DNA of 64,000 nt from Pseudomonas sp. MM223 (GTDB taxonomy: Bacteria; Pseudomonadota; Gammaproteobacteria; Pseudomonadales; Pseudomonadaceae): the NCBI GenBank assembly GCA_947090765.1, contig OX352322.1, forward strand, positions 5,511,001 through 5,575,000, given 5' to 3'. Both the position numbers and the translations under genes were made by a program. Positions 28,080 through 57,732 of this stretch are shown one piece after another. Below the pieces are notes generated by a model that made no database searches, had not been told where the DNA came from, and saw nothing but the letters and a program-made list of their open reading frames with translations. Position 1 is the stretch's first letter, and each line of letters starts with the position of its first letter.

Positions 28080-28836
28080 GGCACGGCCGCCATCACGCAG
28101 CCTGATGCTGGTGCTGCACGATGTCGCGCCCGAGACCTGGCCAGACTACCAACCCTTCGTCGAGGCCATAGATGCCCTCGGCGGTGTCCCCATGACCTGG
28201 CTGGTGGTGCCGGACTTTCACCAACGCAACCTGCTGCTGCGTTCGCCCACCTTCTGCCGCCTGCTTGAACGGCGCCTGGCCCAGGGCGACGAGCTGGCCT
28301 TGCACGGCTATTACCATGCCGACAACGGCCCACCGCCACGCACGCCTGGCGAATACTTCATGCGCCGCGTCTACACCCATGAAGGTGAATTCTACGGCCT
28401 TGACCAGCAGCAGGCACTGCAACGGCTGGAGCGCGGCCTGGCGCTATTCCACCAGCAGGGTTGGCCTGTAGCCGGCTTTGTCGCGCCAGCCTGGTTGATG
28501 AGCGAAGGCACCCGCCAGGCCCTGCGCCGCTTGCCGCTGCGTTACACCAGCACGCCACAGCACCTGTACCGCTTGCCGGACTTCACCGCGATCGAAGCCC
28601 CGGGGCTGGTGTGGAGCGCCCGTAGTGCCTGGCGCCGAGGGTTTTCCAGGGTGTTGTGCGACTGGCAATGCCGCCGTTGGCGCGACGCCGAGGCCATACG
28701 CCTGGGCCTGCACCCTGTAGACATGCGTCACCGCACCTCCCGTGACTACTGGCTGAACACCTTGCGCAACTTGCTGGCTCAAGGCCGCGAGCCACTGACC
28801 AAGTCGGCCTGGCTGGACCGCAAGGCCAACGCATGA
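28072..28836 (+). CDS. DUF2334 polysaccharide-deacetylase-like protein
   Basis: This 254-aa protein belongs to the DUF2334 group, related to NodB carbohydrate deacetylases. ATG 28072 lies inside the end of the glycosyltransferase gene. Metal-site-like residues are seen in LVLHDVAPETW (HD near residue 15) and ELALHGYYHAD (two His near residue 80). FVAPAWLMSEGT follows as in the family. It overlaps the flippase-like gene by 4 bp (ATGA). Likely it modifies the product of the upstream glycosyltransferase. Confidence 0.82.
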   Translation: MAEARPPSRSLMLVLHDVAPETWPDYQPFVEAIDALGGVPMTWLVVPDFHQRNLLLRSPTFCRLLERRLAQGDELALHGYYHADNGPPPRTPGEYFMRRVYTHEGEFYGLDQQQALQRLERGLALFHQQGWPVAGFVAPAWLMSEGTRQALRRLPLRYTSTPQHLYRLPDFTAIEAPGLVWSARSAWRRGFSRVLCDWQCRRWRDAEAIRLGLHPVDMRHRTSRDYWLNTLRNLLAQGREPLTKSAWLDRKANA

Positions 28837-29935
28837 ACCGCCTGGCCTGGCTAGGCCTGGCACTGCTCGCTGCCGTGCTGGTGCCGATCTTGCTCGGTGG
28901 CAGCGAACTGCTGCCGAGGCTGCAACGCTTCGACCCTGTGCTAATGCTCAGCCTGCTGGGCATGATCCTGCTGTGCTGGGCCCTCAACGCCATCCGCTTG
29001 CGCCTGTTGCTCGGTCAGCAAGGTGCCAGGCTTGGGCCGCTGCGTAGCTTCGGCGTGGTAATGGCCACCGAATTTGCCATCTGCACCACCCCCGGTGGCA
29101 GCGGCGGGCCCTTGACCCTAATGGCATTGCTGGCACGTGACCGCATCAGCCCGGCACGCAGCGGCGCTGTATTCGCCATGGATCAGTTGAACGACCTGGT
29201 GTTCTTCTTCTGCGCAATGCTGGCGATAGCCGGCTACGCACTGTTCCATAGCCTGGGCCGCAGCCAGGAAAGCATGTTGCTGGGCAGTGCGCTGCTACTG
29301 TGCACAGCACTGGCCGCAGTGGTCGGGCTGCTGCGCTACCGCCGCCAGGTAATGCGCCTGAACGGCAGGCTGCTGCGGCGCCTGGGCATGAGCCAGCAGC
29401 GCAAGCGCCGCTGGGCACGCAAACTGATGCACTTCATACACGCACTGGCGCAGACCTGGCAGCTGCCCAAGCGCACGCTGAGCCTGGTGTTCACCCTGAC
29501 CTGCGTACACTGGGGGCTGCGCTACAGCGTGTTGTATCTGGTATTGAGAGGGTTGGGCGTGGACCTGGCATGGATCCCCAGCTTCCTGGTGCAGATGCTG
29601 TCGCTCAGTGCCGGCCAGTTCAGCCTGTTGCCAGGCGGTGCCGGTGCCGCCGAGTTTCGACTTCGGCCAGCCTGCTGACGCCATGGGTGGGCAGTTCGAC
29701 CGCCGCGGCGGCGATCCTGATATGGCGGGCGGTTACTTACTACTTTTATCTGCTGGCGGGTGGGCCGGTGTTCGTGTGCCTGCTGGCGCGCCCGTTGCTG
29801 GAGCGCTGGCGGGGTCAGGCGGGTTGGCTGTTGCCACAGCTCGGCAGCGCCGGGGAAGTCGGTGCCGTCAGTGTCATCCAGGGCTTCGGGGTCGTAGCGG
29901 GCCAGGCAGCCTTCGCCGAGGGTGGGTGGCGGTGA
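28833..29935 (+). pseudogene. UPF0104 / LPG-synthase-like membrane protein, frameshifted
   Basis: This protein belongs to the UPF0104 (AglD/MprF flippase-domain) multi-helix family. The open frame gives 281 aa and stops at 29678. After LLPGGAGAAEF it shifts into nonsense (RLRPAC). The expected continuation (TSASLLTPWVGSSTAAAA, then IWRAVTYYFYLLAGGP) is in another frame from 29654. Adding one base near 29655, for example restoring TTCTCG from TTTCG, joins both. The continuation is open to 29935, but the natural end is probably near 29815. The last one or two helices are lost unless this is a sequence error. Confidence 0.78.
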
Positions 29936-55477: not shown

Positions 55478-55592
55478 ATGCCTGTGCCCGCGAAAAGGCC
55501 GGCACGGTTTTGCTTGCTCCGCCCGTATACCGCGCTAACATCAAACCTCTGGAAGATTGACACAGCGCACTCAAGTTGCGGGGTCAGGCAAC

Positions 55593-55627
55593 CGATACAC
55601 TGCTCATGATCGGCCGGTAGTGTATCG
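55593..55627. promoter_or_regulatory. Perfect inverted repeat upstream of bifA
   Basis: CGATACACT (55593-55601) and AGTGTATCG (55619-55627) are perfect 9-bp inverted arms with a 17-bp spacer, 50 bp before the bifA start. No known operator was matched; it looks like a dimeric regulator site. Confidence 0.5.
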
Positions 55628-55677
55628 TCATCGTTGATGGCAAAATGATGCCATGCGCATGGATTAAGGAAACCCCA

Positions 55678-57732
55678 TTGAAGCTGGAATTGCGGAACAG
55701 CTTGTCGGTCAAGTTGCTCAGGGTCGTGCTGCTGTCGGCGTTGGCGGTTGGCGTCGTGCTCAGCTGTGCGCAAATTGTCTACGACACCTACAAGACCCGC
55801 CAGGCCGTGAACAACGATGCCCAGCGCATCCTCGACATGTTCCGCGACCCCTCCACCCAAGCGGTGTAAAGCCTCGACCGCGAAATGGGCATGCAGGTGA
55901 TGGAAGGCCTGTTCCAGGACGAATCGGTGCGCATGGCCTCCATCGGTCACCCCAACGAAACCATGCTGGCAGAAAAGTCCCGCCCGCTGCAGGACATGTC
56001 CATGCGCTGGCTCACCGACCCGATCCTCGGCCAGGAACGCACCTACACCACGCAACTGGTCGGCCGCGGCCCCTATAGCGAATACTACGGCGACCTGAGC
56101 ATTACCCTGGACACCTCGTCCTACGGTGAAGACTTCCTGATCAACGCGGTGATCATCTTCATTTCCGGCGTACTGCGGGCCCTGGCCATGGGCCTGGTGC
56201 TGTACCTGGTCTACCACTGGCTGCTGACCAAACCGCTGTCCAAGATCATCGAGCACCTCACCCAGATCAACCCCGACCGCCCCAGCCAGCACCAGATACC
56301 GCTGCTCAAGGGCCACGAGAAGAACGAACTGGGCCTGTGGGTCAACACTGCCAACCAGCTGCTGGCCTCGATCGAGCGCAACACCCACCTGCGCCATGAG
56401 GCCGAAAACAGCCTGCAGCGCATGGCCCAGTACGATTTCCTCACCGGTCTGCCCAACCGCCAGCAACTGCAGCAGCAACTGGACAAGATCCTCGTCGATG
56501 GCGGCCGCCTGCAACACCGTGTGGCGGTGTTGTGCGTGGGCCTGGACGACTTCAAGGGCATCAACGAGCAGTTCAGCTACCAGGTCGGTGACCAATTGCT
56601 GCTGGCCCTGGCCGACCGCCTGCGTGCCCACAGCGGCCGCCTGGGCACCCTGGCGCGGCTGGGCGGTGACCAGTTTGCCCTGGTGCAGGCCAATATCGAG
56701 CAGCCCTACGAGGCGGCCGAACTGGCGCAAAGCATCCTCGACGACCTGGAGGTGCCTTTCGACCTCGACCACCACCAGCAGATCCGCCTGCGCGCCACCA
56801 TCGGCATCACCCTGTTCCCCGAAGACGGCGACAGCACCGAAAAACTGCTGCAAAAAGCCGAACAGACCATGACCCTGGCCAAAGCCCGTTCGCGCAACCG
56901 CTACCAGTTCTACATCGCCAGCGTCGACAGCGAGATGCGCCGCCGCCGCGAGCTGGAAAAAGACCTGCGCGAAGCCCTGCCGCGCAACCAGTTGTACCTG
57001 GTGTACCAGCCACAGATCAGCTACCGCGACCACCGCGTGGTCGGTGTCGAGGCGTTGCTGCGCTGGCAACACCCGGAGCTGGGCATGGTGCCGCCAGACC
57101 AGTTCATTCCGCTGGCCGAGCAGAACGGCAGCATCATCAGCATCGGCGAATGGGTACTGGACCAGGCTTGCCGGCAACTGCGCGAATGGCACGACCAAGG
57201 CTTCAGCGAGCTGCGCATGGCGGTCAACCTGTCCACCGTGCAACTGCACCACAGTGAACTGCCACGGGTGGTCAACAACCTGCTGCAGGCCTACCGCCTG
57301 CCACCACGCAGCCTGGAGCTGGAAGTGACCGAAACCGGCCTGATGGAAGACATCAGCACCGCCGCCCAGCACCTGCTGAGCCTGCGCCGCTCCGGGGCGC
57401 TCATTGCCATCGACGACTTCGGCACCGGCTATTCGTCACTCAGTTACTTGAAATCGCTGCCGCTGGACAAAATCAAGATCGACAAGAGCTTCGTCCAGGA
57501 CCTGCTCGACGACGATGACGACGCCACCATCGTTCGCGCCATCATCCAGCTGGGCAAGAGCCTGGGCATGCAGGTGATCGCCGAAGGCGTGGAAACCGCC
57601 GAACAGGAAACCTACATCGTTGCCCAGGGCTGCCACGAGGGCCAGGGCTATCACTACAGCAAGCCGCTGTCGGCCCGCGAGCTGACCAGTTTCCTCAAGC
57701 AGGCGCAGCGTAACCAGGTTTCGATGTTCTGA
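55678..57732 (+). pseudogene. bifA: bifA, c-di-GMP phosphodiesterase gene with premature stop
   Basis: BifA degrades c-di-GMP and controls biofilm and swarming. The frame runs from TTG 55678 (behind AAGGAAA) to 57732 without shift, except an in-frame TAA at 55867-55869 (codon 64). That is most simply a Tyr TAC/TAT turned to TAA after STQAV. Everything else is intact: membrane helices near residues 9-30 and 160-180, degenerate GGDQF (329-333), and the catalytic EALLRW (458-463). It would be 684 aa restored. Internal ATG 55885 could allow weak re-initiation without the first helix. The neighbourhood (sodB, icmP) matches P. aeruginosa. Confidence 0.9.

What the first reader, a model, noticed from the sequence alone, without database searches (positions are those of the whole stretch)
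55678..57732. bifA carries an in-frame stop at codon 64
The reading frame from TTG 55678 to 57732 is unbroken except for TAA at 55867-55869; both sides are in the same frame and the degenerate GGDQF and catalytic EALLRW are intact. A single base change in a Tyr codon explains it. Loss of this phosphodiesterase would raise c-di-GMP, favouring biofilm and reducing dispersal and swarming. If real it is a recent natural variant.
Basis: partly seen in the sequence, partly recalled or inferred. Interest (0 to 1): 0.72.

Follow-up and report, generated by a model that had tools for sequence, protein, structure and literature searches.

The report
Stop codon in a biofilm-control gene
The genome record shows one early stop codon in an otherwise well preserved biofilm-control gene of a Pseudomonas, probably a very recent loss of the gene; but the same assembly contains clear sequence errors, so it must be checked against the raw reads before it means anything.

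Summary
The frame 55678-57732 is bifA, open except for TAA at 55867-55869 (codon 64 from the TTG). All 109 relatives' loci compared (105 distinct sequences) carry a Tyr codon there. The orthologue is present once and is otherwise kept: one near relative differs by 113 synonymous but only 2 amino-acid changes. So the stop is either very recent or not real.

Against two relatives it has uncompensated frameshifts in 15 of 246 conserved genes, versus 1-4 of 235-255 in the relatives. metG and leuS, indispensable, are each found only in two pieces. The record thus has indel errors about every 17 kb of coding sequence. The bifA change is a substitution, however, and stop-type changes are not in excess (4 of 662 genes, versus 8 of 673 in the comparison genome; weak test).

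I lean slightly to a real, very recent null allele (0.55) over a base-call error (0.37). Loss-of-function bifA alleles are already described in P. aeruginosa (PMC11307329). An ordinary finding; the raw reads would settle it.

The parts
55571..55598 (+). FliA-type promoter of bifA, intact
   Evidence: string located; 17 nt of it equal a KT2440 bifA promoter primer printed in PMC5300878 (passages; compared by eye); FliA consensus recalled
55664..55672 (+). ribosome-binding site of the TTG start
   Evidence: pairing -6.1 kcal/mol, spacing 5
55678..55866 (+). 63-codon remnant before the stop; holds only the first membrane helix
55699..55785 (+). first hydrophobic helix (residues 8-36)
   Evidence: Kyte-Doolittle windows
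55867..55869 (+). in-frame TAA, codon 64
   Evidence: 109 of 109 relatives have a Tyr codon here
55885..57732 (+). open remainder from the next ATG, 615 aa
56128..56226 (+). second hydrophobic helix (residues 151-183)
56425..56901 (+). GGDEF domain, degenerate (GGDQF)
   Evidence: Pfam PF00990
56959..57666 (+). EAL phosphodiesterase domain
   Evidence: Pfam PF00563

Best explanation
bifA of this strain carries a single, very recent nonsense substitution at codon 64. Translation from the TTG stops after 63 residues, at the beginning of the periplasmic part, so no phosphodiesterase is made, or only traces by restart at poor internal starts. BifA normally lowers c-di-GMP at starvation and so lets LapG cut the adhesin LapA; the expected result is higher c-di-GMP, persistent biofilm or pellicle and weaker swimming. 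Shown here: the stop in the record, no second bifA, intact remainder and promoter, no decay. Inferred: that the base is real, and every consequence in this strain.
For: Stop at a residue that is Tyr in 109 of 109 relatives. No second bifA: the other matches in the genome are paralogues of 47% identity or less. Strong constraint up to the present: dN/dS 0.005-0.041 against eight near relatives, so unconstrained for at most 3.5% (against L066) or 6.2% (against L039) of its branch. The proven error mode of the assembly is the one-base indel, not the substitution; stop-type changes are not in excess, 4 of 662 genes here against 8 of 673 in NBRC 14671; no frameshift confirmed by the three-way test lies in this window. 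bifA loss is a known target of selection in P. aeruginosa (PMC11307329, passages).
Against: The assembly is shown to be error-rich. Absence of decay is also exactly what a base-call error predicts. The stop count is small, and several entries on both sides look like mis-called starts or doubtful short frames. bifA is broken in only 1 of 109 relatives besides this genome (L027). No reads and no other strain of the species were at hand.
Confidence: 0.55

Rival explanations
1. The TAA is a base error of the assembly; the living strain has an intact bifA and nothing happened.
For: 15 of 246 conserved genes frameshifted here against 1-4 of 235-255 in two relatives; metG and leuS each only in two pieces; a second 400 kb gave 20 of 289 genes (two-way only). 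The rest of bifA shows no sign of relaxed selection.
Against: The proven errors are indels, this is a substitution. Only 3.3% of random substitutions in this gene make a stop. No excess of stops. The comparison of rRNA copies meant to measure substitution errors was inconclusive.
Confidence: 0.37
2. The stop is real but function is largely kept: ribosomes restart just downstream or read through, giving an EAL protein without the first membrane helix.
For: In-frame ATG or GTG codons lie 15-63 nt after the stop and leave 599-615 aa with helix 2, GGDEF and EAL. GTG 55927 and ATG 55933 have pairing of -4.0 kcal/mol; CTG 55909 has -6.8 but CTG is a rare start.
Against: The natural TTG has -6.1 and the nearest ATG only -1.6; the 5 internal start codons further on reach up to -4.2 by chance. 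Without helix 1 about 80 residues would have to cross the membrane unaided (inference).
Confidence: 0.06

Closest known systems
BifA of P. putida and P. aeruginosa (c-di-GMP phosphodiesterase, degenerate GGDEF plus EAL)
   Same: Domains, two helices around a periplasmic part, promoter, and near-identical sequence to relatives' full-length proteins.
   Different: In-frame stop at codon 64 in this record.
bifA loss-of-function alleles of P. aeruginosa (evolved L438R; clinical A479E and L440Q; PMC11307329, passages)
   Same: Loss of BifA by one substitution, if the stop is real.
   Different: Those are missense changes in the EAL domain, confirmed by experiment; this is an unconfirmed nonsense change in another species.
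Consensus errors of under-polished long-read assemblies (general knowledge)
   Same: Scattered one-base frame breaks with conserved sequence on both sides, indispensable genes included.
   Different: Those are indels; the bifA change is a substitution.

Membership tests
BifA phosphodiesterase | EAL domain with catalytic motifs and degenerate GGDEF | tested here: met
BifA phosphodiesterase | two membrane helices around a periplasmic sensory part (described as HmsP domain in PMC6669338, passages) | tested here: met
   hydropathy only, residues 8-36 and 151-183 of the read-through frame
BifA phosphodiesterase | orthologous to KT2440 bifA | tested here: met
   84-95% identical genes in 4 relatives and 35 same-genus genomes (79-92%); three KT2440 bifA primers printed in PMC5300878 match at 17 of 17, 17 of 18 and 16 of 18 nt (by eye)
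BifA phosphodiesterase | unbroken reading frame | tested here: not met
   TAA at 55867-55869
BifA phosphodiesterase | c-di-GMP hydrolysis | not testable with these tools
   needs an assay
Real loss-of-function allele | stop present in the DNA of the strain | not testable with these tools
   no reads at hand
Real loss-of-function allele | no second copy of the gene | tested here: met
Assembly error | record shown to contain errors | tested here: met
Assembly error | errors include stop-making substitutions in excess of a relative | tested here: inconclusive
   4 of 662 against 8 of 673: no excess, but small numbers and doubtful entries on both sides; rRNA copies uninformative

The most novel reading that the evidence does not exclude
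The strain has really lost BifA, and some of the other breaks in adhesion genes of this genome (the secretion adaptor beside the lapD-like gene, algG and its neighbours) are real second-site losses that relieve permanent adhesion, so that the genome records a c-di-GMP off-switch lost and then compensated.
Probability: 0.03. Interest if true: 0.5.

Novelty: already known. Interest (0 to 1): 0.15.

Why it matters
If real, it is one more independent case of bifA loss, outside P. aeruginosa, and a dispersal-deficient isolate. The more useful lesson is about the record: frame breaks in it, in bifA or elsewhere, should not be read as biology before the assembly is checked, since metG and leuS are broken in it too.

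Tried and rejected
A second bifA making up for the loss: none found. Three other c-di-GMP genes flagged with a stop were looked at (L119-L121): each has a whole frame of 386-648 aa, so the flagged stops lie outside the frame or in overhang. A conserved or programmed stop: rejected, 109 of 109 relatives have a sense codon. EF-G of the str operon is also in two frames, but is not counted as proof of error, because a second EF-G frame exists and PMC3832671 (abstract) reports the str-operon form as the less active one in P. aeruginosa. rRNA copies as a measure of substitution errors: inconclusive, copies differ by a few mismatches and gaps and part of the stretches reads N. Earlier scans of the bifA block counted mis-called starts, antisense frames and compensated gaps; one search replaced them. 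Two-way scans give results against my reading as well: the three small blocks showed frameshifts in 3 of 60, 1 of 32 and 1 of 29 genes here, against 2 of 61, 0 of 32 and 3 of 31 in NBRC 14671; the reverse direction gave 10 of 274, 13 of 294, 1 of 45, 0 of 30 and 3 of 30 genes in NBRC 14671. Some of those mirror breaks of this genome; I did not sort out how many, and rely on the three-way test.

Full report
What is there. The frame 55678-57732 starts with a TTG behind a good ribosome site. An intact FliA-type promoter lies at 55571-55598 (located; 17 nt of it equal a KT2440 bifA primer printed in PMC5300878, passages; FliA consensus recalled). The frame reads 684 codons with one internal stop, TAA at 55867-55869, and then stays open to 57732. 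The 615 aa from the next ATG carry GGDEF and EAL. The 63 aa before the stop hold the first hydrophobic helix only. The window lies in a 6.73-Mb genome of two contigs; the search of that genome found bifA once, and its other matches are paralogues of 47% identity or less.

Is the codon special? I compared 29 relatives' loci (30 loci were given there, one being the window's own) and 80: 109 in all, 105 distinct. The aligned codon is TAC in 88 and TAT in 21; only the window's genome has TAA. At protein level 108 of 109 show Tyr; the best match in the last, L027, does not reach the residue because that gene has a frame break of its own. In an alignment with 93 relatives (16 of 109 dropped because the start register slipped or the frame broke), residue 64 is the only position where the window has something none of the 93 has; residues 55-67 are otherwise invariant.

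Recency. Against eight near relatives the gene differs by 96-123 synonymous and 2-17 amino-acid changes, dN/dS 0.005-0.041. If all amino-acid changes are charged to this genome's branch, the gene can have been free of constraint for at most 3.5% (against L066) or 6.2% (against L039) of it (a rough Poisson bound). So the stop is very young, or it is not there in the living strain.

Quality of the record. I compared 400 kb around bifA with the matching contigs of P. putida NBRC 14671 and P. inefficax. Of genes intact in both relatives, this genome has 16 uncompensated frameshifts in 15 of 246 genes (266 kb); with the reference swapped, 16 in 15 of 236. Tested the same way, P. inefficax has 2 of 244 and 4 of 245, and NBRC 14671 1 of 235 and 2 of 255; one of these, seen in both, is the mirror image of a break in this genome. 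In the first set 15 of 16 breaks are one base and 14 of 16 touch no run longer than two. A second 400 kb gave 21 frameshifts in 20 of 289 genes, without a third genome as control. Ten plus five broken reference genes were named with NCBIfam; lon, lepA, algG and metG are above cut-off. metG is decisive: in this genome it appears only as two pieces with open frames of 222 and 555 aa, while the two relatives have one frame of 691 and 716. leuS is 147 plus 760 against 927 in both. Both are indispensable (general knowledge), so these breaks are errors of the record. The secretion adaptor next to the lapD-like gene (lap names recalled) is 305 against 463, which a hasty reader would take for biology.

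Results against this. Two-way scans also find frameshifts in NBRC 14671: 10 of 274, 13 of 294, 1 of 45, 0 of 30 and 3 of 30 genes, against 18 of 269, 20 of 289, 3 of 44, 0 of 31 and 0 of 29 here. Some of those mirror breaks of this genome, but I did not count how many. In the infB block the relative has more than this genome.

Does that explain the bifA stop? Not directly. The proven errors are indels and the stop is a substitution. One search found four stop-type changes in 662 genes here (bifA and frames of 159, 210 and 250 aa; the last has no Pfam match) against eight in 673 in NBRC 14671. Several on both sides may be mis-called starts or frames that are not genes. Only 3.3% of random substitutions in bifA would make a stop. 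No frameshift confirmed by the three-way test lies in this window. I put a real null allele at 0.55, a base error at 0.37 and a real stop with kept function at 0.06; these are judgements, not computed posteriors.

If real, how it works. Termination after 63 residues leaves a peptide with one helix and no catalytic domain. Restart is possible but poorly supported: the ATG 15 nt downstream has almost no ribosome site (-1.6 kcal/mol against -6.1 for the TTG), GTG 55927 and ATG 55933 reach -4.0, a CTG at 55909 has -6.8 but is a rare start codon, and five start codons further inside the gene reach -4.2 by chance. A restarted protein would lack the first helix and with it the normal placing of the periplasmic sensory domain, whose exchange in hybrids matters for BifA function in P. 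aeruginosa (PMC6669338, passages). In P. putida BifA lowers c-di-GMP at starvation, which frees LapG to cut LapA; a deletion gives a thick pellicle (PMC5741744, abstract and passages) and weaker swimming (PMC5300878, passages). In P. aeruginosa a bifA point mutation abolished function and won in biofilm competition, with little effect on swimming; 6432 of 7482 strains (86.0%) have the identical protein (PMC11307329, passages).

Known or new. Loss of BifA function is a known kind of variant; this would be one more case, by nonsense, in another species. The library searches that touched this were made; from their listings I opened passages of four papers (PMC5300878, PMC6669338, PMC5741744, PMC11307329), so I make no claim that a bifA nonsense allele of P. 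putida is not in print.

The homologue search scored 7999 candidates and listed 120 of 7981 matches, of 626-699 aa; none of the 120 is a 615-aa product that a second strain with the same stop would give. Clustering at 90% identity could hide one. No other strain of this species was at hand: the collection scan may leave out records very near the window's genome.

Noticed in passing
G000:C1:5385168-5387205 (L124 5168-7205): metG, an indispensable gene, is in two frames in this assembly (222 and 555 aa) and whole in two relatives: an assembly error.
   Followed up: yes
G000:C1:6027849-6030525 (L209): leuS is in two frames (147 and 760 aa) against one of 927 in two relatives.
   Followed up: yes
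G000:C1:597256-599398 (L182): The EF-G gene near rpoB is in two frames here and whole in NBRC 14671.
   Followed up: yes
L119 3842-5217: The secretion adaptor beside the lapD-like gene has an open frame of 305 aa against 463 in two relatives.
   Followed up: partly
window about 7970 and 28833-29824: Two weak frame-break candidates against NBRC 14671, not confirmed by the three-way test; possibly mis-called starts or a non-coding frame.
   Followed up: no
L027: A relative (G034, one contig, completeness 95) has bifA in two frames, the only other broken bifA of the 109 relatives.
   Followed up: partly
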